A DNA stretch of 64,000 bases, taken from NCBI GenBank assembly GCA_903945175.1, contig CAJAUM010000134.1:1-64000 (forward strand), written 5' to 3'. The notes below the pieces were generated by a model. It ran no database searches and was not told the DNA's origin. It saw only the letters and a program-made list of their open reading frames with translations. Made by a program: the position numbers and the translations under genes. The stretch is from an uncultured Bacteroidales bacterium (lineage in GTDB: Bacteria > Bacteroidota > Bacteroidia > Bacteroidales > FEN-979). Positions 11,251-47,935 of this stretch are shown here, in pieces. Each line of letters begins with the position of its first letter. Within the stretch, counting starts at the first letter, position 1.

Positions 11251-13497
11251 CTAATTTTTTTCAACGGACCAGCCGCCCTTCAACCCGAAAATGAACCACG
11301 CCAGCGCCAGAGCCCCGGCAGCAAATACTGTATCACCAATTACCCGAAGCCAGCGGAAAAAAGCAATGGTGGGATCCTGCATAAATTCAGCCGAACGTGC
11401 ATACCACATGCCGGTTCTGACGCTCACCCAGGTTTGTGCCAATCCCACAGGCAGGACACTGATCAGAACCATCAGGGCCAATCCGATGTTGATAGACCAG
11501 AAGGCAAATTTCACCCATTTTTCGTTCCAGATTTTCGCCGGTTCCATGCTTTTTAAAACAAACAGCATCAAACCGATACCAAGCATTCCATAAACACCGA
11601 ACAGTGCAGTATGTCCATGCACCGGGGTGGTATTCAGCCCCTGCATGTAATAAAGAGCAATGGGGGGGTTGATCAGGAATCCGAAAATGCCGGCGCCGAC
11701 TAAATTCCAGAAGGCAACCGAAAGGAAAAAGTAGATCGGCCATTTATAACCGGAGATCCAGTTTTTGCTCTGGGAAATCTTGAAATTCCCATAGCCTTCA
11801 AATCCCATCAATACGAGCGGAACTACTTCGAGTGCGCTGAAGGTCGCTCCCAATGCAATAACGACTGTTGGAGTTCCTGTGAAATAAAGATGATGGAATG
11901 TTCCCAAAATTCCTCCTGATAAAAATACGATAGTCGAAATAAGCACACTGGCTGTGGCGGTTGCAATCCTGACCAATCCCAGGCGAACAAAGAGAAAAGC
12001 AATGGCCACGGTGGCAAAAACTTCGAAAAACCCTTCTACCCAGAGGTGAACTACCCACCAGCGCCAGTACTCAGCAATGGCCAGATTTGTCTGCTGTCCC
12101 CACATAAGACCAGCGCCATAAAATGCGGCAATTGCAATGGTCGAAATAAGGAACATGGTAAGCAATGACTTATTCTCCGATTTAGCCTTCAGGGCCGGCA
12201 TGAGTCCGCGGGCCATTAAAACCAGCCAGATGATTAGTCCAACAAATAGGAACAATTGCCAGAAACGGCCAAGGTCGACGTACTCATATCCCTGATGTCC
12301 GAACCAGAAATTGGTGACTAGTCCCAACCGTTGCATTACACCAAACCATTGACCAATGAGGGATCCGACAACGATAACCAATAGGGCGATAAACAGGAAA
12401 TTAACGCCAAGCGCCTGGAATTTAGGCTCTTTCCCAGAAACTGCAGGTGCCAGGTACAAACCGGTTGCCAGCCATGAAGTTGCAATCCAGAAAATAGCCA
12501 GCTGAATGTGCCAGGTGCGGGAAATGGAATAGGGGAGCAATCCGGAAAGTGGTAGACCATAAAATGCCTGACCCTCAACACCATAGTGGGCGGTGATTAC
12601 CCCCATCAGGATTTGAACGAGTATTAACGCTGTTACAACCCAGAAATATTTCAAAGTGGCTTTCATCGAAGAGGTAAAAATGCCGCCAAGTAATGGGTCA
12701 TTTGAAGGAATGTCACTTTCAGAAAGTTTCTCTTCCTTCCGCGAAGCATAATACCAGCCCATGAGTCCGATACCGGCAATAAGCATGATAACACTGAATC
12801 CTGTCCACAAAATCAAAGAACTTGTTGGTTTATTGTCGACCAGCTCTTCTGATGGCCAGTTATTTGTATATGAGATTTCACTTCCAGGACGATCAGTGAC
12901 ACAAGACCATGAAATCCAGAAAAAGAAAGCATTCATCTTGCTCATGCGACCTTGCTCTTTAATGGAATTGGGTGGAATGGCATAGGCATCGCGTAATTTG
13001 TCGAGCTTTGGATCTGCCATGAACAAGCCTGCATAATGCGCACCAACTGCTTTGATGGCCCGGGCCCGCAAAGGCGAGATGACAATTTTTCCGGAAGTGG
13101 CATCATAGGTGTTGGTGCGGAGTTCCTTCTGAAGCCTGACTTTTAACATCGCTTTCTGTTCAGCAGTGACATCAGCATATGCTTTATGATATGATGTATC
13201 TGCCAGGTAATTGAGGATGTATTCCGATTCGCGGTGCAGCCAGTCAGCCGACCAGTCGGGGGCCACATAGGAGCCATGACCCCAAACAGTTCCAACTTCC
13301 TGCCCTCCTATAGATTGCCAGATGTTCTGACCGTCTTTAATGTCCTGACCGGAAAACAACAGGGTTCCGTCAGTCGTTACAACCTCCGAGGGTATTGGTG
13401 GAGCCTGTTTGTAAATCTCCCGTCCAAAATACAACAGGACAGTGAAGGAAATTGCAATTACGGCGATGAAGCCGAACCATAGTTTTCGTGTTTGCAT
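11251..13497 (-). CDS. norZ: Quinol-dependent nitric oxide reductase, single subunit (qNOR)
   Basis: About 748 residues. Reduces 2 NO to N2O at a haem b3/non-haem iron site, taking electrons from quinol in the inner membrane. The N-terminal extension (residues about 30-225) replaces the NorC subunit and contains SIGGQEVGTVWGHGSYVAPD, typical of qNOR. About 14 helices follow, with the catalytic-core segments HLWVEGFFEVFATVAIAFL, HHLYFTGTP and TTPVHGHTALFGVYGMLG carrying haem and FeB histidines. No NorC, NorD or NorQ is nearby, as expected for qNOR. ATG at 13497 chosen; 13503 is also possible. 36 bp after the Fe-S protein gene. Confidence 0.95.
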   Translation of the reverse strand: MQTRKLWFGFIAVIAISFTVLLYFGREIYKQAPPIPSEVVTTDGTLLFSGQDIKDGQNIWQSIGGQEVGTVWGHGSYVAPDWSADWLHRESEYILNYLADTSYHKAYADVTAEQKAMLKVRLQKELRTNTYDATSGKIVISPLRARAIKAVGAHYAGLFMADPKLDKLRDAYAIPPNSIKEQGRMSKMNAFFFWISWSCVTDRPGSEISYTNNWPSEELVDNKPTSSLILWTGFSVIMLIAGIGLMGWYYASRKEEKLSESDIPSNDPLLGGIFTSSMKATLKYFWVVTALILVQILMGVITAHYGVEGQAFYGLPLSGLLPYSISRTWHIQLAIFWIATSWLATGLYLAPAVSGKEPKFQALGVNFLFIALLVIVVGSLIGQWFGVMQRLGLVTNFWFGHQGYEYVDLGRFWQLFLFVGLIIWLVLMARGLMPALKAKSENKSLLTMFLISTIAIAAFYGAGLMWGQQTNLAIAEYWRWWVVHLWVEGFFEVFATVAIAFLFVRLGLVRIATATASVLISTIVFLSGGILGTFHHLYFTGTPTVVIALGATFSALEVVPLVLMGFEGYGNFKISQSKNWISGYKWPIYFFLSVAFWNLVGAGIFGFLINPPIALYYMQGLNTTPVHGHTALFGVYGMLGIGLMLFVLKSMEPAKIWNEKWVKFAFWSINIGLALMVLISVLPVGLAQTWVSVRTGMWYARSAEFMQDPTIAFFRWLRVIGDTVFAAGALALAWFIFGLKGGWSVEKN

Positions 13498-13533
13498 AAT
13501 CAAAAATTTTAAGATTTTACTGTTATCAATACT

Positions 13534-14388
13534 TTAGGTCCAATCCTCCTCAATTACCTCTCCTTGTACACTGATGATGGCTTGCTTGATGGGAATATTC
13601 CTTCCGGCATTGGTTCGGGCGGTCTGGGCCATATGTAATAAACCTCCACAGCAGGGCACCTCCATCATCACTACAGTGAGAGAATTGATCTTCGTATCTG
13701 AAATCATGGATGTAAGTTTCTGAATGTATGATTCTTTATTGCTGTCCAGTTTCGGACAGGCGATGGCAACGGATTTCCCTTTAAGGAACCGTGAGTGAAA
13801 ATTGCCCATGGCAAAGGCTGCACAATCAGCGGCCAATAAAACATCTGAATTTTTAAAATAGGATGCCTGAGGATTGAGCAAATGTAACTGAACTGGCCAT
13901 TGGCGCAGTTCGGAGGCAATCACCTGCGCTACCGCCGGAACAGCTGCTGCTTCCTGTTTGATTTCTTCGGCTCGGAAATCCCTGGCCATTGAGCCGGGGC
14001 ATCCGCATTCACCATGTGAATGATTTTCTGTTTTTTCTGGACTCATCATCATGTTGTGTTCTTTTAAATAATCAATTGCTTGTTGTAAAAATTCATGTTC
14101 GTTATGATCACGGAGATGATCAAGATGGGCCAGGATGGTATTCCTTCCCTTTGGAACCATCATCTCCATTACTTTTCTCTCATCATAGGGTTCCGCTTCA
14201 CGCTCGATGATTTCAATGGCTCCTTCAGGACAATGGCCGATGCACGCCCCCAGGCCATCGCAAAACAAGTCGCTGATAAGCCGGGCCTTTCCATCGATCA
14301 GCTGCATGGCACCTTCATGGCAGTTCGGAATGCAAATACCACATCCGTTGCATTTCTCTTCATCAATCTGAATAATCTTTCGTTTCAT
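13534..14388 (-). CDS. Ferredoxin-type 4Fe-4S protein of the NO operon
   Basis: 284 residues. N-terminal double ferredoxin domain: first motif CNGCGICIPNC is complete, the second reads CDGLGACIGHC with only three of the four cysteines in the usual array, followed by CPEGAI-type sequence. The C-terminal two thirds (about 140-284) include a cysteine-rich CGCPG segment and MMEVPCCGGLLHMA. Such proteins are common in anaerobes beside hybrid cluster protein or NO reductase genes and likely move electrons in nitrosative stress. First gene of the operon; a candidate operator lies at 14401..14418, just before its ATG. Confidence 0.82.
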   Translation of the reverse strand: MKRKIIQIDEEKCNGCGICIPNCHEGAMQLIDGKARLISDLFCDGLGACIGHCPEGAIEIIEREAEPYDERKVMEMMVPKGRNTILAHLDHLRDHNEHEFLQQAIDYLKEHNMMMSPEKTENHSHGECGCPGSMARDFRAEEIKQEAAAVPAVAQVIASELRQWPVQLHLLNPQASYFKNSDVLLAADCAAFAMGNFHSRFLKGKSVAIACPKLDSNKESYIQKLTSMISDTKINSLTVVMMEVPCCGGLLHMAQTARTNAGRNIPIKQAIISVQGEVIEEDWT

Positions 14389-14438: not shown

Positions 14439-14837
14439 TTAAAGATATGATTGTAGGGTCTGTTCCTTCAAAAACTTCTTAAATTCAGCAGTAAGCCTGT
14501 TCACCACATTCCCCATCAGGCAGCGGTCAAATCCGCAAAGGTCATATGATAATGGACATTCGCCGATGTCGATCTGTCCTTCAATGGATTGATAAATGTC
14601 AAGCAGGCTGACATTCTTCGGTTCCATTTTCATGGAGAACCCACCTGAAGGACCACGTACCGATTTGAGCATGTCGTTTTTCACGAGACGTTGTAACACC
14701 TTAGCAATATGATTCTTTGAAAACCCTGTAATTTCGGCAATCTTAACCGCGTTGATTCCATTTTCGGAACGGGCTATAATAACCATGCTGTGAATCGCAA
14801 TTGAAGAAGCTTCCGAAAGGGCAAAAATCTTTGACAC
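14439..14837 (-). CDS. nsrR: Rrf2-family Fe-S transcriptional regulator, NsrR-like
   Basis: 132 residues. N-terminal winged helix (ALSEASSIAIHSMVIIARSE, then KIAEITGFSKNHIAKVLQRL recognition region and RGPSGGFSM wing) followed by a dimerisation helix. Three cysteines C94, C101 and C106 (spacing C-x6-C-x4-C) match the cluster-binding loop of NsrR/IscR proteins. NsrR loses DNA binding when its cluster reacts with NO. Position directly upstream of the qNOR operon on the same strand, 50 bp from the Fe-S gene, supports NO sensing. IscR-like or other Rrf2 roles cannot be excluded by sequence. Confidence 0.82.
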   Translation of the reverse strand: MSKIFALSEASSIAIHSMVIIARSENGINAVKIAEITGFSKNHIAKVLQRLVKNDMLKSVRGPSGGFSMKMEPKNVSLLDIYQSIEGQIDIGECPLSYDLCGFDRCLMGNVVNRLTAEFKKFLKEQTLQSYL

Positions 14838-38107: not shown

Positions 38108-38803
38108 ATGGTAAACAAAATTCATCATAACTCCAATTGCGCCGAATGTAACTGCAAAGCCTCCATTTTTAGTAATTTGAGCCCCCTTGAACTTGAATTG
38201 ATCAACAGCAGCCGTTTCCAGGTAAGCTATAAAGCAGGCGAGATTATCTTTAAGCAGGGGACGCCCTCCCCCTATTTTGTTTGTGTCACCTCCGGGCTAG
38301 CCAAAATATATATTGAGGGATACGGAAAGAATCTGATCCTGGCTTTGATTAAGCCGATTGATTATATTTTCGGCCCCGGAATCTACGTCGATAACCGTCA
38401 CTACTATTCTGCTGCTGCCGTCGAAGATTGTACTGCTTGTCTTGTGGATGTAACCATATTTAAAAAATTGATTCGCGAAAACCCAGATTTTGCTGAAGAA
38501 TTCATTAAACGGGTCTCACTGCAGTCGATCTTTAACTTCGACCAGGTGATCAGTCTTACCCAAAAACAGATGCATGGGCGCATTGCCGATGTGATATTTT
38601 ATCTATCAGATAAGATTTACTGCCAGAACCCATTTGAAATGACCATCTCCCGTCAGGACCTCGCCGACCTCTCCGGAATGTCGAAAGAGAGCGCCATCCG
38701 GATTTTAAAAGAGTTTAAGGAGGAGGGAATTCTTACAACCTCAGGGAATACAATGGAAATCCTCAATTCAAAACAACTTCGGCAGATTAGTGAGACTGGC
38801 TGA
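38108..38803 (+). CDS. Crp/Fnr-family transcriptional regulator
   Basis: 231 residues. N-terminal cysteine group C11, C14, C16, then a cyclic-nucleotide-binding-type beta barrel (about 22-130, YKAGEIIFKQGTPSPYFVCV) with C108 and C111, a dimer helix, and a winged helix with recognition segment GMSKESAIRILKEF (Lys-Glu-x3-Arg, close to Crp's Arg-Glu-x3-Arg). FNR has an N-terminal Cys cluster plus one Cys about 93 residues further on, so redox sensing by an Fe-S cluster is possible here but the Cys spacing differs. Stands immediately before the cytochrome cluster and the palindromic array it may bind. Confidence 0.88.
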   Translation: MVNKIHHNSNCAECNCKASIFSNLSPLELELINSSRFQVSYKAGEIIFKQGTPSPYFVCVTSGLAKIYIEGYGKNLILALIKPIDYIFGPGIYVDNRHYYSAAAVEDCTACLVDVTIFKKLIRENPDFAEEFIKRVSLQSIFNFDQVISLTQKQMHGRIADVIFYLSDKIYCQNPFEMTISRQDLADLSGMSKESAIRILKEFKEEGILTTSGNTMEILNSKQLRQISETG

Positions 38804-38983
38804 TATTCGCTTCACGTCCATGTTGATGTTTTTCCGATTTTCTCTCCTGCTTTTTCTCTTTCCAATACACATGTAACGATATAGGTATTGATATATAATT
38901 CACAACAAAGGCCTTATTATTGTTCTGATTTTTACATTTAACCTCTTTTTCTCAGCTCCTGCAAGTTTGTTTTTATACAAAAA

Positions 38984-38997
38984 TTGATATATGTCAA
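38984..38997. promoter_or_regulatory. Fnr/Crp-like palindrome, site 1
   Basis: TTGATATATGTCAA, arms TTGA/TCAA, close to the Fnr consensus TTGAT-N4-ATCAA. First of a series with 21-22 bp spacing in the 345-bp gap between the Crp/Fnr gene and the hexahaem cytochrome. Confidence 0.65.
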
Positions 38998-39004
38998 CGA
39001 AGAA

Positions 39005-39018
39005 TTGACAAATGTCAG
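39005..39018. promoter_or_regulatory. Fnr/Crp-like palindrome, site 2
   Basis: TTGACAAATGTCAG, with perfect TGACA/TGTCA arms, 21 bp after site 1 so on the same face of the helix. Confidence 0.65.
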
Positions 39019-39026
39019 TTATTATA

Positions 39027-39040
39027 TTAACAAATCTCAC
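39027..39040. promoter_or_regulatory. Degenerate Fnr/Crp-like site 3
   Basis: TTAACAAATCTCAC matches site 2 at 11 of 14 positions and follows at 22 bp. A weaker fourth match, TTAACACAGCCAT at 39048..39060, follows 21 bp later. Confidence 0.4.
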
Positions 39041-39073
39041 CATTTTATTAACACAGCCATCCATAATCTTCGA

Positions 39074-39081
39074 TATTTTTG
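39074..39081 (+). promoter_or_regulatory. Bacteroidota -7 box of the hexahaem cytochrome gene
   Basis: TATTTTTG fits TAnnTTTG, 67 bp before the chosen ATG. Sites 1-3 would then centre about 97, 76 and 54 bp upstream of the start point, suitable for activation. Confidence 0.5.
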
Positions 39082-39148
39082 TCTCTGAAACTATTTGCAC
39101 AAGTTGTCAGCTGTAAAATCCTATTTATTAACAAAAACTGTAAGAGTT

Positions 39149-40507
39149 ATGAAAAATGTACAAAAGTTATTTTATGTTGTCGGTTTGATTTTCATGGTTG
39201 TAAGTTTAACCTTTACTTCCTGTACCAAGGAAGGCCCCCAAGGCCCCCAGGGTGCCCAAGGCCCTATCGGTAAAGATGGCACCCCCGGTAAGGATGGTGG
39301 TGAATCCTGCAAACAATGCCATGCAAAAGCCGTTGTCGACGCAATTGCTGTTGAATTCCAGATGTCAAAGCACTTCTGGGGCGCTGCCGCCTTCGAAGAA
39401 GCTGGAAACACATCCTGTGGTCCCTGTCACGAACAAAAAGCATATGTCTATGTTTGTGAGAACAACACGCCAGCAACATTTACCTTTAAAGGTGGTAAAT
39501 GGGTTAATGACTATGCAACAAACGCTGCCAATGCAATTGGTGAGATCGGTTGCTTTACCTGTCACACCAATCTTCACACCACGTATGGTATGTCTGATCT
39601 GGCACTTACCTCTGTAGCTCCGGTTCCCATGACAATGTGGGGTGGCGCCAAAACCATCGACCTGCAACAGGGTGGTGGCAAGAGCAACTTGTGCGTAAAA
39701 TGTCACCAGCCGCGTCCGCTCACCTGCGGAAACGATCCTGCCGGCAGATTACTCAATTATGACTCTGTTAAGAATTTTCCGACTGCCGTTATGTACGACA
39801 GTGCTACCGGTGCGAAAAACACGATGTTAAAACCCTCTTACAGAATGCACATTCACTACGGTGCGATCAGTGGCGTATATGCAGGGGTAGGAGCAATCGA
39901 ATATCCTGGTACCCGTACCTATTCCAATTCACCCCATACCACGGTTGCTACCTGTCAGGATTGCCATATGGCCGGTCCAATGACCGGTATCGCAGGGGGA
40001 CATGCTTTCAATATGAGAAACGCAAAAGAATCCGCGTTAAGTTCAGGTACAACCTGGAACTTCAATGGTTGTAACATAACAGACTGTCACGCAGCAAACC
40101 CGATTGATGCCAATTCAGCCAAATTCAAGGATGTAAGGGCTGAAGTTAAAACTTTGCTTGATGCACTGGCTGCAAAAATTAACGCTTGCGGTGGTGGAAA
40201 TGACATTCTTCACAAAGATGCGAGCGCAGCCAATCTATGGGCCGGTGTCACAACCAAGAATTATGATGGCTATCTCGATATTTATAGTTCTTCAACAAAT
40301 CCGCTTGGATACTGGAGAGATCCTTATAATACAAGTGCTGCCAACATGGCAAAACCAAAATTCCCCAAATTACTGATGGTTCAAACAGGTGCCCTTATCA
40401 ACTTCCAGTTCTGTTTAAGGGAGTACAGCTTAGGTATTCATAATACCCAATATGTAAAAGCCCTGTTAACCAATTCTGTTGAAGCTCTGAATGCAGCTGG
40501 TCTGTAA
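39149..40507 (+). CDS. Hexahaem c-type cytochrome lipoprotein with collagen-like linker
   Basis: About 452 residues from the ATG giving MKNVQKLFYVVG. Lipoprotein signal with lipobox Cys25 (LTFTSC), then about seven Gly-X-Y triplets (residues 29-51, GPQGPQGAQGPIGKDG onward), then haem motifs CKQCH 54-58, CGPCH 90-94, CFTCH 135-139, CVKCH 182-186, CQDCH 269-273 and a CX4CH-type CNITDCH at 308-314. The last 130 residues carry no further haem motif. The stiff linker would hold the haem domain away from the membrane, consistent with a surface electron carrier. No family with known reaction is recognised. Leads the cytochrome cluster; a strong terminator follows. Confidence 0.87.
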   Translation: MKNVQKLFYVVGLIFMVVSLTFTSCTKEGPQGPQGAQGPIGKDGTPGKDGGESCKQCHAKAVVDAIAVEFQMSKHFWGAAAFEEAGNTSCGPCHEQKAYVYVCENNTPATFTFKGGKWVNDYATNAANAIGEIGCFTCHTNLHTTYGMSDLALTSVAPVPMTMWGGAKTIDLQQGGGKSNLCVKCHQPRPLTCGNDPAGRLLNYDSVKNFPTAVMYDSATGAKNTMLKPSYRMHIHYGAISGVYAGVGAIEYPGTRTYSNSPHTTVATCQDCHMAGPMTGIAGGHAFNMRNAKESALSSGTTWNFNGCNITDCHAANPIDANSAKFKDVRAEVKTLLDALAAKINACGGGNDILHKDASAANLWAGVTTKNYDGYLDIYSSSTNPLGYWRDPYNTSAANMAKPKFPKLLMVQTGALINFQFCLREYSLGIHNTQYVKALLTNSVEALNAAGL

Positions 40508-40517
40508 AATGATCTGA

Positions 40518-40564
40518 TTAATCAAAAAAAGGCTTCAGAGATCCTGAAGCCTTTTTTTGATTAA
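40518..40564. terminator. Rho-independent terminator with 21-bp perfect stem
   Basis: 40518..40538 pairs perfectly with 40544..40564 around a 5-base loop (AGATC), with A and T runs inside the stem. Ends transcription after the hexahaem gene and separates it from the next cytochrome. Confidence 0.92.
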
Positions 40565-40628
40565 TTTTGAATAGTAGATCTGTTGAAAAGACAACACCCC
40601 TAATCCTCAAACCCTTAAAATAAAATAT

Positions 40629-41009
40629 ATGCAAAAGCTTAAATGGATCAATCTGATTGTCGTTGTGATAGGAATTTTTCTGTTTGGTGCATGTGAATAT
40701 GCCACCATACAGCCTGATGCACCTATTCCCCCCCCCCCTCCTGGTGATTCTACCAGTTATTCACTTAAGGTACAACCCATCTTTGATAGCAAATGTTTAT
40801 TATGTCATTCCGGAAATCAAATACCTGACCTGCGTTCAGGCAGATCGTACCAAAGCCTGATGGATAACAACATGGTCGTTAAGTCTAATTCTGCTGAGAG
40901 TGTTTTGTATAAAAAAATTCTCCCGGGAGCAAGCATGAATATGTATTGTAGTTCCACAGAAATCTCGACCATCAAGTTCTGGATCGATGAAGGAGCAAAG
41001 AACAATTAG
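40629..41009 (+). CDS. Monohaem c-type cytochrome lipoprotein
   Basis: 126 residues. Lipobox FGACE (Cys about 21), a Pro-rich linker PIPPPPPGD encoded by an 11-C run, and one haem motif CLLCH (about 57-61) with the following IPDLRSGRSYQSLM and KILPGASMNMYC, a pattern like planctomycete-type cytochrome domains. Methionine in ASMNM is a candidate sixth ligand. Probably an outer-membrane-anchored periplasmic or surface electron carrier. The next gene begins 8 bp after its stop, so they form a unit. Confidence 0.85.
   Translation: MQKLKWINLIVVVIGIFLFGACEYATIQPDAPIPPPPPGDSTSYSLKVQPIFDSKCLLCHSGNQIPDLRSGRSYQSLMDNNMVVKSNSAESVLYKKILPGASMNMYCSSTEISTIKFWIDEGAKNN
40728..40738 (+). repeat. Poly-C tract of 11 in coding sequence
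   Basis: Eleven C in a row inside the linker of the monohaem lipoprotein gene, just after the lipobox. Homopolymer tracts of this length often slip during replication; a frameshift here would switch the gene off. Confidence 0.85.
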
Positions 41010-41016
41010 ACACGGC

Positions 41017-42006
41017 ATGAAAAAAACATTCACTAAAAACACGAAAACAATGCACACATTTATATTTTCTTCGAAAAAGATGATCCTTGGCCTTGTATTT
41101 ATTTTCCTCGGTTTAGGGACAATTATGGCGCAGGACTCCATTCCTGCAGAGCCGGAAATAACACAGAAACCATTGGCTAAACCTGCATTTGAAAGCGGAA
41201 TCTGTATGGATAACATAACGGTAGCGTTGCCATCGGCCCATACGCTCGAATTTGTACTGCAACACCGTTTTGGCACCATCCAGCAAAAATGGTCCGACCT
41301 TTTCGGCCTGTGGGGCGCCTCCAATATTCGTTTGGGGTTGAACTTCACCATCACCAAAAACCTGATGGTCGGGTTGGGAACTACAAAAAATAACCGCCTA
41401 CAGGATTTTCAGTTAAAATATGTCTTTGCCCATCAACGTAAAGGGGGATTCCCATTGACCATTGCCTACTATTTTGACTTGTCGCTGAATGCATTGAGCA
41501 GCGATAATAACAAGTTCGGGGCAGAGTACAAATTTATTGACCGGCTGACCTACTACAACGAGTTTTTATTTGCCCGAAGGTTTTGTAAGGAATTTTCAGC
41601 ACAGATTGGTATTAGTTATACCCACATCAATAAAACGGATGGGAAAGTCGACACCAGCCAGAATGTTGTGGGGAATGATGCATTGGCCTTTTCACTGCTT
41701 GGTCGGCTTAAGTTAAGCCCTCAATCATCTATTGTGTTGTCATATACGCAACCCATTATATTAAATTACGATCCGGCTTTTATTGTCAGGGCCGGAAAGA
41801 ACTGGATGGAAATCCCGAAAAACAAGGCTCCTTATGCCAATATTTCTCTGGGTTGGGAGGTTTCAACAAGTACCCACGCATTTCATGTATACATTTCGGC
41901 AGCACAGGGCATTCTTCCTTCAGAAGTCGTAATGCATAATACCAACAACTTTTTTGATGGCTTTATTCTTGTAGGGTTCAATCTTACCCGTTTATGGAGT
42001 TTTTAA
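41017..42006 (+). CDS. DUF5777-family outer-membrane beta-barrel protein
   Basis: About 329 residues from MKKTFTKNTK, or 318 from ATG 41050. Signal peptide region ends near TIMAQ. The body is a run of amphipathic strands typical of a beta-barrel: LEFVLQHRFGTIQQKWSDLF, NIRLGLNFTITKNLMVGLG and a terminal aromatic LTRLWSF. DUF5777 barrels are often found beside multihaem cytochromes in Bacteroidota. A barrel in such a cluster could let electrons pass the outer membrane with a cytochrome inside or attached, as in porin-cytochrome conduits; this is inference. Confidence 0.85.
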   Translation: MKKTFTKNTKTMHTFIFSSKKMILGLVFIFLGLGTIMAQDSIPAEPEITQKPLAKPAFESGICMDNITVALPSAHTLEFVLQHRFGTIQQKWSDLFGLWGASNIRLGLNFTITKNLMVGLGTTKNNRLQDFQLKYVFAHQRKGGFPLTIAYYFDLSLNALSSDNNKFGAEYKFIDRLTYYNEFLFARRFCKEFSAQIGISYTHINKTDGKVDTSQNVVGNDALAFSLLGRLKLSPQSSIVLSYTQPIILNYDPAFIVRAGKNWMEIPKNKAPYANISLGWEVSTSTHAFHVYISAAQGILPSEVVMHNTNNFFDGFILVGFNLTRLWSF

Positions 42007-42043
42007 CCAACTATATTATTGTTTAACCTAAATTTTATTGATT

Positions 42044-42460
42044 ATGAAAACATCGAAAAAAATTGCAACGATTATGGCAGCTGCTCTGCTTGTCGTATTC
42101 TTCCTTTTTGGCAATACGCTTCAAGCCCAGCAGGCAAAGGCAAAAGCATGGCCTGTTCCAGATAAGGACAAGGCAATGAAAGCCACAGGAAAAGCTGATT
42201 TAGCAACAGGCAAAGAACTCTGGGCAAAGCATTGTAAATCATGCCACGGAAGTAAAGGTCTCGGCGACGGCCCAAAAGGCGCCTCGTTGAAAACTTTTGC
42301 AGGTGACTTCTCTGCTGCTGACTTCCAGGCTGGAACAGATGGCGAACTTTATTATCGTACCAGCAAAGGTCGTGATGAAATGCCGGGATACGAAAAGAAA
42401 ATTCCTGAAGCCGCTGATCGCTGGGCATTGGTTGCCTTCATGCGTACAATGAAAAAATAG
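42044..42460 (+). CDS. Small periplasmic class I cytochrome c
   Basis: 138 residues from ATG 42044 (an in-frame TTG at 42038 is also open). Signal peptide (about 1-29, ending LQAQ). Single haem motif CKSCH at 64-68 in ELWAKHCKSCHGSKGLGDGP, and the Met ligand in DEMPGYEKK near residue 113. Soluble shuttle type, probably moving electrons between the inner-membrane complex and the outer-membrane proteins. Followed by a terminator. Confidence 0.93.
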   Translation: MKTSKKIATIMAAALLVVFFLFGNTLQAQQAKAKAWPVPDKDKAMKATGKADLATGKELWAKHCKSCHGSKGLGDGPKGASLKTFAGDFSAADFQAGTDGELYYRTSKGRDEMPGYEKKIPEAADRWALVAFMRTMKK

Positions 42461-42463
42461 CTG

Positions 42464-42485
42464 AATAATGATTCAATAATGATTC
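42464..42485. repeat. 11-bp perfect tandem duplication
   Basis: AATAATGATTC occurs twice in direct succession (42464..42474, 42475..42485) in the gap after the cytochrome c gene. No function evident. Confidence 0.8.
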
Positions 42486-42487
42486 AC

Positions 42488-42527
42488 AAAATGGGTGTTA
42501 ACGGGGATTCCTGTTGACACCCATTTT
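42488..42527. terminator. Rho-independent terminator
   Basis: AAAATGGGTGT (42488..42498) pairs with ACACCCATTTT (42517..42527), extended by a G-U and AAC/GTT pairs, followed by T7. Separates the outer cytochrome genes from the inner-membrane complex genes. Confidence 0.85.
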
Positions 42528-42566
42528 TTTCTAAACCAATCCGAGTAACCTACTACACAATACCAT

Positions 42567-43592
42567 ATGATTTATAAAGCAAATATCCGGCCTGCATGGG
42601 TCGTACTGTTGATGATGATGTTATGCTTGCTCGCATTCACCATGATTAAAACCTCAGACAACTCGTCTCCGGTAAATAAAAAAATCCAGGCCGAACAGGA
42701 AACCTCCCCACAGGTCGATCTCACCAAGTTTAAAAATGCAGAGGAAAATGAAAAATGTTTCAAATGCCATGGCCAATCAAAATACACCTACGAAAACCCG
42801 GATTCGAAAAAAATTGTGAATAAACGCATGTATGGTGAGTTGGTCATGAACCGTGATGTATTCTACGTTTCAAACCATCGTGAGTTTAAATGCATTGATT
42901 GCCATTCCGAAGATTATGGGACCTTTCCGCATGCCGGGAACCTTCGCATGGAGGCGATTGCCACCTGCATCGATTGCCATGGCGGAGATGAAAAATATGC
43001 CAAGTTTGAGTTCGAAAAAATCGATACGGCCTTCCTTGCCAGTGTTCATTCCGTAAAACACAATCAAGATTTTACCTGCTGGATGTGCCATGATGCACAT
43101 ACCTATAAAATTAATGCCCGCTCAAATGAAATTCTTAAAGAAACGATAACTTACGATAACCTGATTTGCCTGAATTGTCATGGAGATCTTAAGAATTATC
43201 AATTACTAACCGATAAGGCCAAGCCAAACATTCTGAAGAAACATGAGTGGTTGCCCAACCAGGCATCCCACTTTACCAATGTACGCTGCATCGAATGCCA
43301 TGCAAGAAATGAAGATACCCTGGTAGTCGCACATCATGTGGTGTCGAAAAGTCAGGCCGTCAGAAAATGTGAATCCTGTCATTCGAAAAATTCCATTCTC
43401 TATGCCTCCCTCTATAAGTACCAGGTAAGTGAAAAGATTCAGAAAGAGGGCATCATTAAGGGCCTGCTGATGGGAGAATCGACCTCCATCGGTCCTGATA
43501 AAAGCAATACGTTGAATATCATTAGCCTGACCATCTTTGGATTAACAATTTTGGTCATCATTATCCATGCGATCCTGCGCATTAAAAAATAA
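42567..43592 (+). CDS. Heptahaem membrane-anchored cytochrome c
   Basis: 341 residues. N-terminal signal anchor (about 9-27), seven CXXCH motifs (64, 109, 134, 171, 201, 241 and 268 as first Cys positions) and a C-terminal helix (about 315-336, ending AILRIKK). The protein is thus held in the inner membrane with its haems in the periplasm. No NrfA-like CXXCK and no known active-site pattern, so it is more likely an electron relay than a reductase. First gene of the inner-membrane operon (cytochrome c, cytochrome b, Fe-S, NrfD). Confidence 0.92.
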   Translation: MIYKANIRPAWVVLLMMMLCLLAFTMIKTSDNSSPVNKKIQAEQETSPQVDLTKFKNAEENEKCFKCHGQSKYTYENPDSKKIVNKRMYGELVMNRDVFYVSNHREFKCIDCHSEDYGTFPHAGNLRMEAIATCIDCHGGDEKYAKFEFEKIDTAFLASVHSVKHNQDFTCWMCHDAHTYKINARSNEILKETITYDNLICLNCHGDLKNYQLLTDKAKPNILKKHEWLPNQASHFTNVRCIECHARNEDTLVVAHHVVSKSQAVRKCESCHSKNSILYASLYKYQVSEKIQKEGIIKGLLMGESTSIGPDKSNTLNIISLTIFGLTILVIIIHAILRIKK

Positions 43593-43600
43593 ATCGAACA

Positions 43601-44224
43601 ATGAACCATCAAACTGAACGACTCTATCTGTATCCTGTCTGGATCAGGATCTGGCATATGACCAATGCCCTGCTCTGCCTTATTTTGATCATAACCGGTT
43701 TAAGTATCCAGTTTTCAAACCCAACTACCGTAGTTAAATTTAATGCAGCTGTCACCGTGCATAATTTGGCTGGAATTATTCTGACGATCAGTTACGGATT
43801 GTTTTTTCTCGGCAATCTTTTTACCCCCAATGGCTCCCATTACGTTATTTCTGTAAAAGGGTTTATAATGCGACTGAAAAAGCAATTTTATTATTATACC
43901 ATAGGCATATTCAAGAAGGAAAATGCTCCGTTCCCGATAAATGAAGATGGTAAATTTAACCCGCTCCAACAGGTTACCTACGTTGTACTGATGTATGGAT
44001 TTGTTCCGTTTGTCATCATTTCCGGCTGGGGACTTCTTTACCCTGAAATGACGGTATATAGTGTTTTTGGCATCAGCGGACTTGATCTGACCGATCTGCT
44101 CCATATCACTGCAGGCTTTGGAATCAGCATCATTATGTGTGTACATATCTATTTCTGCACCATTGGAAAAAATCCGACCAGCAACTTTAAAAGCATGATC
44201 AATGGTTATCATGAATCTCACTAA
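43601..44224 (+). CDS. Dihaem cytochrome b subunit
   Basis: 207 residues, four helices. Starts YPVWIRIWHMTNALLC with His19 and AAVTVHNLAG with a second His, then DLLHITAGFGISIIMCVHIYF with two more, fitting a four-helix cytochrome b561/thiosulfate-reductase-type subunit that binds two b haems and exchanges electrons with quinone. 8 bp after the heptahaem gene; 25 bp before the Fe-S gene. Confidence 0.88.
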   Translation: MNHQTERLYLYPVWIRIWHMTNALLCLILIITGLSIQFSNPTTVVKFNAAVTVHNLAGIILTISYGLFFLGNLFTPNGSHYVISVKGFIMRLKKQFYYYTIGIFKKENAPFPINEDGKFNPLQQVTYVVLMYGFVPFVIISGWGLLYPEMTVYSVFGISGLDLTDLLHITAGFGISIIMCVHIYFCTIGKNPTSNFKSMINGYHESH

Positions 44225-44249
44225 AAAATAAATAAACGTGGAAGAAGAA

Positions 44250-45200
44250 ATGAATAAAAATCAGAAAAACTCACGTCGTCAATTCCTCAAAAAAGGACTT
44301 ATCGCCGGTGCAGGAGTTGCTATCGGAGGAGGCCTTGTCGCGGCCTATGTTGACGTTTCAGCTGCCGAAACCGGAGAAAAGGTAAAAGTGCTGACGACCG
44401 ATGGCGAAATCATGGAGGTGGACAAGGGGCTTCTTAAGTTGCCCCGGGTTTCAATCGCTGAATCCCACAAAGGCATTCCCGGCCGTAAATTTGTCATGGT
44501 TATTGATCTTGGCAAATGTAAAAACGCCAGGAAATGCGTAGAAGCCTGCCAAAAAGGACATCATCTTCCACAAAGTCAGGAGTTTATGAAGGTTTATCTC
44601 CTTCAAGATTCGGAGAAAACAGCCCCTTACTGGTTTCCCAAGCCATGCTTCCACTGCGACAACCCTTTGTGTGTTAGCGTGTGTCCGGTTGGCGCAACCT
44701 ACAAACGTACTGACGGTATTGTACTGATAGACAATGAACGCTGCATTGGCTGTAAGTTTTGTATGACGGGTTGTCCCTATTCAACCCGCGTTTTTGCCTG
44801 GAAACACTATCCTGAATTTGATGAAGATAAAGAGCCCTACTCTCCCGAGGCCAGCAGCCCCGGAAAAGAAGGCACGGTTTCAAAATGTGATTTTTGTCCA
44901 GACCTGATCCGCATTGGTAAAATTCCATATTGCGCCTCCGCTTGTCCGATGGGGGTCATCTATTTCGGTGATGTGGACGAGGATACCGTGACGAATGGAA
45001 CCGAAACGTTGCAATTCAGTAAATTAATACATGACCGGGCAGGATACCGCTATCTTGAAACACTTGGAACCCGCCCATGCGTATATTATCTTCCTCCCGT
45101 TGATCGCCAGTATGAAGTCGACAGAGGGTTCGGCGATCTTGAAGAATCTGTGAAAGAAAGATACAAAGACACTCCATACAGTAAAAAAAATAAACAGTAA
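44250..45200 (+). CDS. Tat-exported four-cluster ferredoxin-type Fe-S subunit
   Basis: 316 residues from ATG 44250; a GTG 12 bp earlier is in frame but the intervening GAAGAAGAA looks like leader. Tat signal SRRQFLKKG (Arg9-Arg10). Four DmsB/NrfC-like cysteine groups: I C90, C96, C100 with Ala93 where the second Cys is expected; II C133, C136, C141, C145; III C165, C168, C171, C175; IV C213, C216, C228, C232. The missing Cys suggests a 3Fe-4S cluster at that site. It should carry electrons along the periplasmic face between NrfD/cytochrome b and the heptahaem protein. 2 bp before the NrfD gene. Confidence 0.9.
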   Translation: MNKNQKNSRRQFLKKGLIAGAGVAIGGGLVAAYVDVSAAETGEKVKVLTTDGEIMEVDKGLLKLPRVSIAESHKGIPGRKFVMVIDLGKCKNARKCVEACQKGHHLPQSQEFMKVYLLQDSEKTAPYWFPKPCFHCDNPLCVSVCPVGATYKRTDGIVLIDNERCIGCKFCMTGCPYSTRVFAWKHYPEFDEDKEPYSPEASSPGKEGTVSKCDFCPDLIRIGKIPYCASACPMGVIYFGDVDEDTVTNGTETLQFSKLIHDRAGYRYLETLGTRPCVYYLPPVDRQYEVDRGFGDLEESVKERYKDTPYSKKNKQ

Positions 45201-45202
45201 CC

Positions 45203-46516
45203 ATGGAACTAGAACAAAAAAATCCGTTAAGGGACTTTTCTCCGCAACTCGAGCGGACCTCCATCCTGGGATATGCCTGGATCGTCTTCTTGCTCGGAGT
45301 AATCGGTTTAGGCTTTTATGCATTTCTCGCACAAGTATATGAAGGTCACGAAGTTACAGGTATGCGGGACAATGTGGTTTGGGGCGTTTATATCGTCAAT
45401 TTTATCTTTTTTATGGGCATCAGCTATGCTGGTGCACTCATTTCAGGGACCTTACACCTGTTTAAAACCGCCTGGAGAAAACCGATCATCCGCATGGCTG
45501 AATTTATTACCATCATTGCACTTTTGATCGGCCCCTGCTTTATTCTGCTCTGCATCGGGCGACTTGATAAATTACATTACCTGGTCCTTTTCGGGAGAAT
45601 TCAGTCCCCGATCACGTGGGACGTCATCGCTATTTCGACCGATATTTTCGGGTGTTTTATTTTTCTCTACCTATCGGTGTTGCGTGACCTGGCCACATTG
45701 CGTGACTATGAATTGCTTCAGCTTCCAAATTGGAGAAAAAAATTGTATCGCCTTCTTGCACTTGGATATACAGGAACTCCCGAACAGCAGCAACGGTTAA
45801 ACAGGGCAACGGATATCATGGCTGCCATGGTTATTGCGATCGCAATCATTGTGTACTCTGTATTGGCCTGGATTTTCAGCGTCACCCTCCAGCCGGGCTG
45901 GCACAGTACCATCTTTGGCCCCTATTTCGTTATTGCGGCGGTCTATTCCGGAAGCGCGGTGCTGATTCTTTGTATGTGGGTTTTCAGAAAAATTTACCAT
46001 CTTGAGGAGTACATTACAAAAAAACATTTTGTGGCCGTTGGGGTTATCATGCTTGTTTTGGCAGCTTTTTTCGGCTATTTTACCTTCAGTGATTATCTGA
46101 CCAAATGGTATGGCTCGGAAAAAAATGATGAATTGCTCATACAGCTCCTCTTTAAGGAATTCTACTGGCCCTTCATTATTTCAAACTATATTGGGGTACT
46201 TTTACCTCTGCTCGTGGTTGGTATTGCCAAACTCAGGACCATCACCAACATCACTTTGACAGCGATTGTAGTTGTCATCGCACTATGGCTCAACAGATAT
46301 CTTATTGTGGTTCCTACATTGGAATCGCCCTATTTACCCATTCAGGATTCACGTGCTGCATGGCTGAATTATTCAGCTACATGGGTAGAATGGAGCCTTA
46401 CGGCAGCAGGGGTTGCTATTTTTTGCCTTCTTTTTACACTGGCATCCAAGTTCATTACCATCGTCCCTGTTACAGGTCTAATCAAGGAAGAAAAAAAGGA
46501 AGATATTTTAGTATAA
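45203..46516 (+). CDS. nrfD: NrfD/PsrC-type quinone-interacting membrane subunit
   Basis: 437 residues with about ten helices, as in the NrfD family (WIVFLLGVIGLGFYAFLAQV start, VVWGVYIVNFIFFMGISYAG, final pair around 370-425). NrfD subunits oxidise or reduce quinone at the periplasmic side and usually pair with a four-cluster Fe-S protein, as in Psr, Nrf, Act and Qrc complexes. The upstream gene supplies this partner. Exact complex type cannot be assigned. Confidence 0.92.
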   Translation: MELEQKNPLRDFSPQLERTSILGYAWIVFLLGVIGLGFYAFLAQVYEGHEVTGMRDNVVWGVYIVNFIFFMGISYAGALISGTLHLFKTAWRKPIIRMAEFITIIALLIGPCFILLCIGRLDKLHYLVLFGRIQSPITWDVIAISTDIFGCFIFLYLSVLRDLATLRDYELLQLPNWRKKLYRLLALGYTGTPEQQQRLNRATDIMAAMVIAIAIIVYSVLAWIFSVTLQPGWHSTIFGPYFVIAAVYSGSAVLILCMWVFRKIYHLEEYITKKHFVAVGVIMLVLAAFFGYFTFSDYLTKWYGSEKNDELLIQLLFKEFYWPFIISNYIGVLLPLLVVGIAKLRTITNITLTAIVVVIALWLNRYLIVVPTLESPYLPIQDSRAAWLNYSATWVEWSLTAAGVAIFCLLFTLASKFITIVPVTGLIKEEKKEDILV

Positions 46517-46546
46517 ATATTCATCGGAATTACTCAATATACCCTT

Positions 46547-47446
46547 ATGAAAAGAGTTTTCGTGTTCTCATTGATTATTTGCACCATGATTTCCATGGTT
46601 TTTCAGCCAATTTCCTCCTATGCTGAAAACAACACAGATTCCACCAATATACCGGTTGAGTCACGTATGGCACTAAACTACATCTGTAGCTCCGATTCGC
46701 TCCTCTTAACTGCAACACTCAGTATTAAGAAAGGAGATATCACGTTGGCACTTGAAAATGCTACAATAGAATATAGTGCGTCGAATGGTGCAATCAGCAA
46801 ATTACTTGGGAAGGCCACAACCGATCAGGAAGGAAATGCTGTTTTTAAAATTTCCAGTGCGGGATTGCCTGCTGATAAGGAAGGAATGGTCTCCTATTCG
46901 GCAAAGTTTCCGGGAAATAATAAATATCCTGCGGCGGAGGCCAATTTTATTGCCAAACCTGCGAAGATTAAGCTTTTTTTCAGCATTGAGGACTCTTTGC
47001 GTGTAATGAAAGTTACTGCTACTCAGAAAAATGAAAAAGGCGAGGATGTTGCAATCCCTAAGGAAACTGTCAATATTTACGTTCCCCGGCTGTTCAGTTT
47101 ATTGAAAATCGGTGAAGTTGCACTTGATGAAAATGGGACCGGAACCATGGAATTTCCAAAGGAAATCGTGGGTGATACCATCGGAAACATTATTGTGATG
47201 GCTAGAATTGAAGAACACGATCAATTTGGATTCGTTCAGGGTGAAAATATGATCAACTGGGGCGTTCCTAAACAATATTACAAGGCTGAAGTGCCTTCCC
47301 GTGAGCTGTGGACTCCGATCGCCCCATTATGGATGATCATTACCCTCCTGATCATGCTGGCTGGTGTTTGGGCTCACTATGCGTATGCTGTGTATGAGCT
47401 GGTCATGATCAAGCGCCTCAGTAAAAAAAATAAGCCACTTTTCTAA
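46547..47446 (+). CDS. Ig-like periplasmic protein with C-terminal membrane helix
   Basis: 299 residues. Signal peptide (about 1-25, ending SYA), two beta-sandwich-like halves (about 40-135 and 140-245) and one C-terminal helix (LWMIITLLIMLAGVWAHYAY, about 259-278) followed by basic residues. No cysteine-haem motif. 30 bp after the NrfD gene, so likely part of the operon, perhaps an assembly or docking subunit of the complex. No family recognised. Confidence 0.7.
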   Translation: MKRVFVFSLIICTMISMVFQPISSYAENNTDSTNIPVESRMALNYICSSDSLLLTATLSIKKGDITLALENATIEYSASNGAISKLLGKATTDQEGNAVFKISSAGLPADKEGMVSYSAKFPGNNKYPAAEANFIAKPAKIKLFFSIEDSLRVMKVTATQKNEKGEDVAIPKETVNIYVPRLFSLLKIGEVALDENGTGTMEFPKEIVGDTIGNIIVMARIEEHDQFGFVQGENMINWGVPKQYYKAEVPSRELWTPIAPLWMIITLLIMLAGVWAHYAYAVYELVMIKRLSKKNKPLF

Positions 47447-47482: not shown

Positions 47483-47935
47483 ATGAACCTCCCTTTGAAT
47501 TCTCCCCAGGTGCTTGCAGCATTGTCGAATGGAAAGATCCGTGAAGCCAACGAGTTGATGAAATCCGTGTATCTTATCCATGCCCTGGTTGTTCATGGAA
47601 ATCACCTTGGCCGGTCCCTTGGGTATCCCACAGCGAATCTTGAATTACTGAAAAATAAGCCTTTTTTGTTGGCCCATGGAGTTTATGCAGTTAAAGCCGA
47701 ATTCAATCACGCGGTGTATAACGGGATGGCCAATGCAGGAGTTCGACCTACCATCGATGGTAAAACAATGACGATCGAAATCAATTTATTCGACTTTTCG
47801 GGATCTTTATATGGGAAAACGCTCGTCGTTTATTTTATTGACCGTATACGGGATGAAAAAAAATTCAATACCCTCGATGAGTTGGTTGCACAAATCCATT
47901 TAGACAAACAACAGGCACTTAAATTACTTTCCTGA
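47483..47935 (+). CDS. ribF: Stand-alone riboflavin kinase
   Basis: 150 residues. Contains only the riboflavin kinase domain of RibF: LVVHGNHLGRSLGYPTANLE, YNGMANAGVRPTIDG with the PTxxG-type substrate loop, and IEINLFDFSGSLYGKTLVVYF. The first 30 residues (SPQVLAALSNGKIREANELM) match the linker that in full RibF joins the FAD synthetase domain, so the N-terminal domain is lost or was never present. Makes FMN from riboflavin and ATP. A separate FAD synthetase is needed elsewhere. 36 bp after the Ig-like gene. Confidence 0.85.
   Translation: MNLPLNSPQVLAALSNGKIREANELMKSVYLIHALVVHGNHLGRSLGYPTANLELLKNKPFLLAHGVYAVKAEFNHAVYNGMANAGVRPTIDGKTMTIEINLFDFSGSLYGKTLVVYFIDRIRDEKKFNTLDELVAQIHLDKQQALKLLS

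What the first reader, a model, noticed from the sequence alone, without database searches (positions are those of the whole stretch)
38108..47446. Candidate previously undescribed electron-transfer system across both membranes
The run encodes, in order, a Crp/Fnr regulator, a hexahaem surface lipoprotein with a collagen-like linker, a monohaem lipoprotein, a DUF5777 beta-barrel, a soluble cytochrome c, then a heptahaem inner-membrane cytochrome, cytochrome b, Tat-exported four-cluster Fe-S protein, NrfD subunit and an Ig-like anchored protein. Components suit a quinone-to-surface electron route. The parts are seen in sequence; the combined role is inferred. No NrfA, MccA, PsrA or other catalytic subunit is encoded in the cluster, and the gene set does not match a named porin-cytochrome conduit I know.
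Basis: partly seen in the sequence, partly recalled or inferred. Interest (0 to 1): 0.82.

Follow-up and report, generated by a model that had tools for sequence, protein, structure and literature searches.

The report
Bacteroidales trans-envelope cytochrome gene cluster

Summary
In detail: all ten genes are there, in order, on the + strand. The cluster is real and widespread. The heptahaem protein is in 65 of 295 sampled Bacteroidales genomes. Of 41 well-flanked heptahaem loci, 41 have the cytochrome b, 40 the monohaem lipoprotein, 40 the DUF5777 barrel and 39 a hexahaem-family protein. The Fe-S/NrfD/Ig triad is optional.

Heptahaem plus cytochrome b has CbcL architecture; natural fusions exist. 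The hexahaem protein has six haem motifs and six other conserved histidines, so probably no open catalytic haem. Monohaem protein and barrel change as one unit (partial Mantel 0.93, p 0.0002). An FNR-like box follows the regulator gene in 12 of 15 loci.

The DUF5777-monohaem pair also occurs away from multihaem genes elsewhere in the phylum.

Verdict: a new variant of extracellular electron transfer systems with an unusual outer-membrane unit. Direction and substrate are not shown.

The parts
38108..38803 (+). Crp/Fnr-family regulator, probably FNR-type
   Evidence: PF00027, PF13545; Cys11 in 43 of 43, Cys14 in 42 of 43, Cys16 in 27 of 43 and Cys111 in 43 of 43 aligned regulators
38984..38997 (+). 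FNR-like box TTGATATATGTCAA between regulator and hexahaem gene
   Evidence: Pattern TTGAY-N4-RTCAA within 420 nt after crp in 12 of 15 loci (not in L031, L036, L039) against 138 of 30000 Markov-1 resamples; in the whole window 2 matches, 0.80 expected, 18 of 100 shuffles with at least 2
39149..40507 (+). Hexahaem (5 CXXCH + 1 CX4CH) collagen-linker lipoprotein
   Evidence: G-X-Y-like linker after the lipobox Cys in the 44 rows printed (read by eye, duplicates included); six non-motif His conserved; distant similarity to the NrfA/OcwA group, below significance in structure
40629..41009 (+). Monohaem lipoprotein with a Pro-rich linker
   Evidence: Lipobox-like Cys22 and CLLCH; haem motif CX1-4CH in 62 of 62 distinct copies; co-varies with the barrel
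41017..42006 (+). DUF5777 outer-membrane beta-barrel, 12 strands predicted
   Evidence: PF19089 3e-61; AlphaFold2 pLDDT 74.4, pTM 0.71; NanC/KdgM-like
42044..42460 (+). Small cytochrome c, probably periplasmic
   Evidence: PF13442/PF00034; hydrophobic N-terminus; in 35 of 41 well-flanked loci
42567..43592 (+). Heptahaem inner-membrane cytochrome c
   Evidence: 7 CXXCH, 8 further invariant His, N- and C-terminal hydrophobic segments
43601..44224 (+). Cytochrome b561-type quinone-reactive subunit
   Evidence: PF01292 2.6e-24; conserved His 19, 54, 168, 182, 204; fused to the heptahaem protein in L166; 526- and 549-aa heptahaem ORFs with no separate cyt b ORF in L179 and L180
44238..45200 (+). 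Tat-exported four-cluster Fe-S protein, DsrO/QrcC-like
   Evidence: Fer4_11; NCBIfam DsrO 3e-49, below its cut-off; 15 conserved Cys
45203..46516 (+). NrfD-type integral membrane quinone-reactive subunit
   Evidence: PF03916 4e-31; NCBIfam DsrP 2e-23, below its cut-off
46547..47446 (+). Ig-like periplasmic protein with C-terminal membrane anchor
   Evidence: Weak Big_3_5 below cut-off; hydrophobic segment 258-276; present in the same 27 of 41 loci as NrfD
47483..47935 (+). Stand-alone riboflavin kinase, possibly a housekeeping neighbour
   Evidence: PF01687; 36 bp after the Ig gene, same strand; see Noticed in passing for the caveat

Best explanation
A trans-envelope respiratory electron-transfer system, most likely for dumping electrons outside the cell when oxygen is scarce. 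Step 1 (supported by family membership and natural fusions): cytochrome b and the heptahaem protein form a CbcL-like menaquinol dehydrogenase in the inner membrane. In many genomes the Fe-S/NrfD/Ig triad adds a second quinone-reactive, periplasm-facing module. Step 2 (inferred): the small cytochrome c carries electrons across the periplasm. Step 3 (coupling shown by co-variation, mechanism inferred): at the outer membrane the monohaem lipoprotein and the 12-strand DUF5777 barrel act as one unit. The haem probably sits at or in the mouth of the narrow barrel and passes electrons to a small diffusible redox carrier or to the neighbouring hexahaem protein. Step 4 (inferred): the hexahaem protein, on its collagen-like stalk, is the relay or terminal reductase for extracellular acceptors such as humic substances or Fe(III). 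It is an electron-transfer protein rather than an enzyme with an open haem. The regulator switches the operon on through an FNR box. Shown: gene content, conservation, co-variation, histidine pattern, FNR-like boxes. Not shown: surface exposure, outward direction, substrate, and how electrons pass the outer membrane.
For: Synteny: 41 well-flanked distinct heptahaem loci hold, within 9 kb, cytb 41, mono 40, barrel 40, crp 39, hexahaem-family 39, cyt c 35, Fe-S 28, NrfD 27, Ig 27. A further 20 loci, drawn from other families of the order, hold cytb 20, barrel 19, mono 18, hexahaem-family 17, crp 15, cyt c 13, triad 4 (L178 repeats L046, so 19 are new). The linkage survives rearrangement: hexahaem gene downstream or on the other strand in L045, L046, L059, L143, L144. 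Genome-level co-occurrence in 61 relatives: both 39, hexahaem only 2, heptahaem only 1, neither 19 (hexahaem at E 1e-3, distant relatives included, heptahaem at E 1e-20; Fisher 1.4e-12, not corrected for kinship). DUF5777 in 40 of 40 heptahaem-positive and 4 of 21 negative genomes. CbcL-type fusion: L166, domains 63-336 and 348-551. Hexahaem: 6 motif + 6 other His conserved at 95% or more in 28 rows. Mono-barrel unit: identity matrices r 0.93, partial Mantel 0.93 p 0.0002 in 17 same-genus genomes, against about 0 with the hexahaem protein. FNR-like box in 12 of 15 loci.
Against: The predicted barrel is too small for a sheathed multihaem wire, so one step lacks a physical model. The mono-DUF5777 pair also sits, elsewhere in the phylum, beside genes that I read by eye as YceI-like, without multihaem genes in the ~1.5 kb flanks printed (DUF5777 in 115 of 296 genomes), which suggests a more general role. 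Hexahaem orthologues occur apart from the cluster in several genomes. Mono also shows a small residual correlation with cyt c (0.21, p 0.002). The host has four haem-copper oxidase-family genes, so it is not a simple extracellular respirer and inward flow is possible. Surface exposure of either lipoprotein was not tested. No expression or physiology data.
Confidence: 0.55

Rival explanations
1. Same machinery run inwards: an electron-uptake system. Fe(II), reduced humics or another organism donates electrons at the surface, and they go through mono/barrel, cytochrome c and the heptahaem/cyt b (or NrfD) module into the quinone pool and then to oxidases.
For: Four haem-copper oxidase-family genes in the own genome. 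CbcL/MtoC homologues occur in both reducers and oxidisers (PMC6295460, abstract and passages). Qrc-type Fe-S/NrfD complexes take electrons from cytochromes to quinone (PMC8076601, passages). Single haem plus barrel resembles Cyc2, an iron oxidase (PMC8406198, passages).
Against: FNR-like control suggests use without oxygen. The lineage is probably heterotrophic (inference from order; not tested). No autotrophy genes were looked for.
Confidence: 0.22
2. The hexahaem protein is a reductase of a soluble substrate (nitrite, hydroxylamine, an oxyanion) descended from the NrfA/OcwA group, and the cluster is a respiratory or detoxification operon. The barrel is only a substrate porin.
For: Weak similarity to Cytochrom_C552 (1e-4, below cut-off) and OcwA (6i5b, E 0.0056). 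24 of 25 listed Foldseek matches are NrfA, octahaem nitrite reductase or OcwA chains, none at E 1e-3 or better. OcwA itself reduces nitrite (PMC6703420, passages). NanC/KdgM-like barrels are substrate porins (recalled).
Against: No CXXCK motif, though OcwA's open haems lack it too (PMC6703420). As many conserved non-motif His as haems, so no spare open haem is expected; which His serves which haem is not known. The family is variable and is replaced within the locus while the rest stays, unlike what I would expect of a catalytic subunit.
Confidence: 0.12
3. The mono-DUF5777 unit is not electron-conducting. It is a lipoprotein-barrel pair for envelope upkeep or uptake (as in the YceI-linked version), recruited next to an electron-transfer operon that ends in the periplasm.
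For: Widespread version beside YceI-like genes (read by eye) without multihaem genes in the flanks; inferred lumen with a conserved charged network.
Against: Haem motif kept in 62 of 62 distinct copies even as its spacing varies. The pair sits with the heptahaem/cyt b genes in 40 of 41 loci and through rearrangements.
Confidence: 0.11

Closest known systems
CbcL / MtoC / MtrH and CbcBA quinone-cytochrome modules (Geobacter and others)
   Same: Multihaem c plus b561-type subunit, inner membrane, in electron-exchange gene clusters; fused form present in relatives. Background: PMC6295460 and PMC12307469, passages
   Different: Split into two proteins here; no Geobacter sequence was compared; the haem number of CbcA is recalled, not checked
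MtrCAB / OmbB-OmaB-OmcB porin-cytochrome conduits
   Same: Outer-membrane barrel encoded beside multihaem cytochromes and a probable surface multihaem lipoprotein
   Different: 12-strand DUF5777 barrel, monohaem partner, no MtrB hit over cut-off; OmbB-type porins were not searched for
Cyc2 fused cytochrome-porin
   Same: One haem plus one barrel; in three f57 genomes the slot beside a collagen-linker hexahaem-family lipoprotein holds a single-protein monohaem porin (L169, L170, L171)
   Different: Two proteins; 12 against 16 strands; Cyc2 motif absent; the f57 fused porins are not detectably homologous to DUF5777
DsrOP / QrcCD / NrfCD modules
   Same: Tat Fe-S protein with four clusters plus NrfD subunit
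   Different: No DsrMKJ, QrcAB or NrfAB partner recognised; paired with an Ig-like anchor; accessory and absent as a block in many loci
OcwA (Thermincola)
   Same: Possible distant kin of the hexahaem protein
   Different: OcwA has nine haems, two of them open (PMC6703420, passages); here six, probably all bis-His
Bacteroidetes_1 seven-gene cluster on a bioanode (PMC8258643) and unassigned Bacteroidetes porin-cytochrome sets in a humic lake (PMC6344600)
   Same: Bacteroidetes, multihaem cytochromes beside a barrel, described as uncharacterised or novel (passages)
   Different: Sequences and supplements not seen; identity with this cluster unknown

Membership tests
MtrAB/PCC-type porin-cytochrome conduit | Large barrel (26 strands in MtrB, PMC8406198; at least 14 used as a criterion in PMC7399161) around a periplasmic multihaem protein | tested here: not met
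   12 strands; neighbour of the barrel is monohaem in the window
MtrAB/PCC-type porin-cytochrome conduit | MtrB/PioB homologue | tested here: not met
   PF11854: none over cut-off in 61 genomes, own included; no positive control in that call
MtrAB/PCC-type porin-cytochrome conduit | Barrel gene beside multihaem cytochrome genes | tested here: met
   40 of 41 loci
MtrAB/PCC-type porin-cytochrome conduit | Electrons shown to cross the outer membrane | not testable with these tools
   Needs biochemistry
Cyc2 | Cytochrome and porin fused in one protein | tested here: not met
   Two ORFs in the window
Cyc2 | AXPXFAR[Q/K][T/Y] motif before CXXCH | tested here: not met
   Monohaem alignment read by eye against the motif given in PMC8406198
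Cyc2 | Single haem c with an outer-membrane barrel | tested here: met
   Met as a two-protein unit
CbcL/MtoC/MtrH | Multihaem c domain joined to a b561-type domain | tested here: met
   As two adjacent genes in the window; fused in L166 by HMM domains; 526/549-aa frames in L179, L180
CbcL/MtoC/MtrH | Sequence homology to Geobacter CbcL or CbcBA | not tested
   No named reference sequence was compared
DsrMKJOP / Qrc / Nrf | Four-cluster Fe-S protein plus NrfD subunit | tested here: met
DsrMKJOP / Qrc / Nrf | Their catalytic or cytochrome partners, and NCBIfam cut-offs for DsrO/DsrP/QrcC/QrcD | tested here: not met
   All below curated cut-off; no such partner among the ten proteins
NrfA (cytochrome c552) | CXXCK catalytic haem and PF02335 over cut-off | tested here: not met
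FNR regulators | Three N-terminal Cys plus one central Cys, and a TTGAT-N4-ATCAA site (both recalled) | tested here: inconclusive
   Two N-terminal and one central Cys invariant or nearly so, a third in 27 of 43; box in 12 of 15 loci; Fe-S binding not testable

The most novel reading that the evidence does not exclude
A monohaem lipoprotein and a 12-strand DUF5777 barrel form a new, minimal and exchangeable outer-membrane redox unit, far smaller than the porin-cytochrome conduits known to me and common across Bacteroidota. The lipoprotein's proline-rich linker may thread the barrel so that its haem serves the far side. Anaerobic Bacteroidales have wired it to a CbcL-like quinol dehydrogenase and a collagen-stalked hexahaem protein for respiration outside the cell.
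Probability: 0.28. Interest if true: 0.88.

Novelty: new variant of a known kind. Interest (0 to 1): 0.7.

Why it matters
Bacteroidales abound in many anoxic waters and sediments and are usually treated as fermenters (recalled). A trans-envelope respiratory system whose heptahaem marker is in about a fifth of sampled Bacteroidales genomes (65 of 295) would change how carbon and iron budgets of humic and iron-rich waters are read. It also gives a first functional lead for DUF5777, a barrel family found in 115 of 296 sampled Bacteroidota genomes and named in no paper of the library searched, and a marker set for finding extracellular respiration in genomes where the MtrB family gives no hit.

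Tried and rejected

DUF5777 as a relative of the fused monohaem porins of f57: profile comparison gave a probability of 0.8 percent over 27 columns (only three sequences on one side), so the likeness is of position and architecture only.

Hexahaem as NrfA: motif, cut-off and His pattern against it; the structural search gave only sub-threshold NrfA/OcwA matches, kept as a lead.

NrfA as a hidden constant partner: 19 of 40 against 6 of 21 genomes, Fisher 0.18.

Riboflavin kinase as a flavin-shuttle part: by my reading of the list, a short copy is in 32 of 33 heptahaem-positive and 1 of 4 negative f1 genomes. However, the long RibF-like protein has lost its PTAN and GxRPT motifs in the five f1 copies checked, so the short gene may be housekeeping; and co-loss may be one deletion. 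Not claimed.

Reading all 'hexa' hits as one orthologous family: rejected; those at 24-30% identity are 6-haem paralogues lying beside or near the orthologue.

The lipobox-plus-haem control used a looser rule than the HMM count: by the control's own rule the DUF5777 loci score 23 of 30, by the HMM 25 of 30.

Literature: DUF5777 in no held paper. The listings show no title or abstract start that describes this gene set; most listed papers were not opened. The library is open-access only, and supplements could not be read.

The hexahaem model is modest (pLDDT 62.6), with several haem regions among the weak parts.


Full report
What is there. The window (own genome G000, 4.4 Mb, 155 contigs; order Bacteroidales judged from the record titles of same-genus contigs) encodes at 38108-47446, on the + strand, an FNR-like regulator, a hexahaem lipoprotein, a monohaem lipoprotein, a DUF5777 barrel, a small cytochrome c, a heptahaem protein, a cytochrome b, a Tat Fe-S protein, an NrfD protein and an Ig-like anchored protein. 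Gaps from the hexahaem gene on are at most 121 bases (coordinates).

How conserved. A search of 61 relatives with the hexahaem protein hit 41 (E 1e-3, distant relatives included), and with the heptahaem alignment 40 (E 1e-20); both are present in 39, hexahaem only in 2, heptahaem only in 1, neither in 19. In the home family the order crp-hexa-mono-barrel-cytc-hepta-cytb-(FeS-NrfD-Ig) is kept, in the window between asd and a riboflavin kinase. I pooled 50 distinct heptahaem loci (5-8 CXXCH). For the 41 with at least 4 kb upstream and 2 kb downstream, partners within 9 kb were: cytb 41, mono 40, barrel 40, crp 39, hexahaem-family 39, cyt c 35, Fe-S 28, NrfD 27, Ig 27 (nine loci with shorter flanks were left out of this count). 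Many of these are close kin. A second set of 20 loci drawn from other families gave cytb 20, barrel 19, mono 18, hexahaem-family 17, crp 15, cyt c 13, triad 4 (20 of the 65 hits were fetched; L178 is the same contig as L046; L192 lacks the outer-membrane part; L186 has its barrel on the other strand and no recognised mono). Across the order the heptahaem protein is in 65 of 295 genomes, 45 of 184 genera. In a phylum sample it is in 9 of 395, the own genome included; seven of these are f57 genomes with a 13-haem relative.

What is core and what is swapped. The Fe-S/NrfD/Ig triad comes and goes as a block: absent with flanks closed up in G005, G009, G011, G028 and G032, and absent in 16 of the 20 loci from other families, where 19-haem, 6-haem or 4-haem cytochromes often lie near cytochrome b. 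The hexahaem slot is variable: orthologues at 47-80% identity in some genomes, and 29-44% relatives in the same place in others. The monohaem and barrel genes come in two forms. Among eight loci, the barrel is 69-83% identical within a form and 48-57% between forms, and mono 57-78% against 35-46%, while hexahaem, heptahaem and cyt b show no such split. Over 17 same-genus genomes the mono and barrel identity matrices correlate at 0.93, and still 0.93 after removing the heptahaem and cyt b signal (5000 permutations, p 0.0002). Mono-hexa is -0.02 and barrel-hexa -0.06; mono-cytc shows 0.21 (p 0.002) and barrel-cytc 0.10 (p 0.09). The simplest reading is that mono and barrel are exchanged together because they work together; their being adjacent also helps joint exchange, so this is strong but not conclusive.

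Inner-membrane module. The heptahaem protein has seven CXXCH, eight other invariant His in 17 rows and two terminal hydrophobic segments; cytochrome b is PF01292 with conserved His. L166 carries both as one 554-aa protein, and L179 and L180 have 526- and 549-aa heptahaem frames with no separate cyt b gene while the cyt b profile still hits. This is the CbcL/MtoC architecture; PMC6295460 (abstract and passages) reports that family in 15 phyla, including five Bacteroidetes homologues, on both sides of iron redox metabolism. The triad resembles DsrOP and QrcCD but stays below every curated cut-off.

Outer-membrane parts. The hexahaem protein has a lipobox-like Cys, a G-X-Y linker of variable length, six haem motifs and exactly six other His conserved in at least 95% of 28 rows. 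This argues against a vacant catalytic haem, though which His serves which haem is not known. Its model is modest. PDB matches are sub-threshold but 24 of the 25 listed are to NrfA, octahaem nitrite reductases and OcwA, echoing the weak sequence hits; OcwA is a cell-surface terminal reductase of the NrfA group (PMC6703420, passages). The barrel model has 12 strands and, among monomeric porins, matches NanC, KdgM and VhGalP well (TM-score by target 0.67, 0.73, 0.65), with a conserved charged network on the inferred lumen side. MtrCAB has a 26-strand barrel that holds a decahaem protein, and Cyc2 is predicted to have 16 strands with one haem (PMC8406198, passages). So an MtrAB-like wire is unlikely. 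The monohaem protein keeps a haem motif in 62 of 62 distinct copies while the spacing drifts: CX2CH 44, CX4CH 14, CXCH 3, CX3CH 1.

A wider pairing. In the phylum sample, DUF5777 is in 115 of 296 genomes. Of the 30 loci read there (the best-scoring, one of them the own genome's second copy), 25 have a monohaem-family protein by HMM within about 1.5 kb, and 23 have a small lipobox-plus-haem ORF. The control used the second rule on 34 window tiles: 2 were positive, at offsets 37800 and 39600, which cover the window's own monohaem gene. Many of these loci also carry a small protein that I read by eye as YceI-like (output partly cut, not family-searched). So the mono-barrel pair is broader than the electron-transfer cluster, which is evidence both for it being a unit and against its being specific to extracellular respiration. 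In three f57 genomes (L169, L170, L171) a collagen-linker hexahaem-family gene is followed instead by a single 399-431-aa protein with one CXXCH and a barrel-like sequence, then a Tat-type protein (Rieske by Pfam in L170, the only one scanned), one or two small cytochromes c, a 13-haem protein and a cyt b. These fused proteins have no Pfam hit and no detectable homology to DUF5777, so the parallel is one of design.

Regulation. The regulators share Cys11, Cys14 and Cys111 (43, 42 and 43 of 43). TTGAY-N4-RTCAA follows the regulator gene in 12 of 15 loci, 89-92 nt after it in eight of the twelve, against 138 of 30000 resamples; L031, L036 and L039 lack it. FNR-type control is the natural reading; the consensus is recalled.

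Direction. The named carriers come from environmental MAGs. Several bin names (Loclat, Alinen, Ja1, LacPavin) I recognise as stratified lakes, and one (SulCav) as a sulfidic cave; apart from the names this is recalled. The own genome has no NrfA or MtrB hit over cut-off but four haem-copper oxidase-family genes. I favour outward flow under oxygen shortage; inward flow cannot be excluded.

Prior art. DUF5777 appears in no held paper. He et al. 2019 (PMC6344600, passages) mention unassigned porin-cytochrome sets in Bacteroidetes of a humic bog. PMC8258643 (passages) describes a Bacteroidetes bin enriched on an anode with a seven-gene cluster of six multihaem proteins and one barrel.

Verdict. 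A genuine, widespread and modular electron-transfer system; a new variant of extracellular electron transfer, with an outer-membrane unit that does not fit the conduits tested above. Confidence in the general function is moderate; in the outer-membrane mechanism, low.

Noticed in passing
window 47483-47935: Stand-alone riboflavin kinase follows the locus in the home family; a second ~310-aa RibF-like protein elsewhere has lost the PTAN and GxRPT kinase motifs in the five f1 copies checked. Either a flavin supply for the system or the relocated housekeeping kinase; G007, G022 and G029 have only the long copy.
   Followed up: partly
L133, L138, L141 (mono genes): The single haem-binding motif reads CXCH in three genomes of one genus (g8), and CX3CH or CX4CH in others, within one protein family. 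CXCH would be an unusual natural haem-attachment motif (recalled).
   Followed up: partly
L169, L170, L171: Single-protein monohaem porins (399-431 aa, Cyc2-like layout, no Pfam hit) beside a collagen-linker hexahaem-family lipoprotein and a 13-haem cytochrome, with a Rieske protein in L170.
   Followed up: partly
L042, L044, L053, L055, L150, L190: 19-haem cytochromes of 931-965 aa follow or lie near the heptahaem/cyt b pair where the Fe-S/NrfD/Ig triad is absent; a NapC/NirT-type 6-haem protein is also present in L042.
   Followed up: no
window 11251-13503 and 14589-14602: A haem-copper oxidase-family gene (750-aa ORF, possibly a nitric oxide reductase by its length; no NCBIfam hit) with an FNR-like box about 200 bases upstream of the next gene on that strand, 13534-14388.
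   Followed up: no
L156 (G000:C53): Second DUF5777 barrel of the own genome, with two monohaem-family proteins and a YceI-like protein (by eye), no multihaem gene in the 16 kb read.
   Followed up: no
L045, L059: The regulator gene lies beside a large gene that looks, by eye, like a ResB/CcsA cytochrome c maturation protein (not family-searched).
   Followed up: no
L031, L032, L039: A 6-haem paralogue (26-29% identical) precedes the hexahaem gene, a tandem pair of surface-type cytochromes.
   Followed up: no
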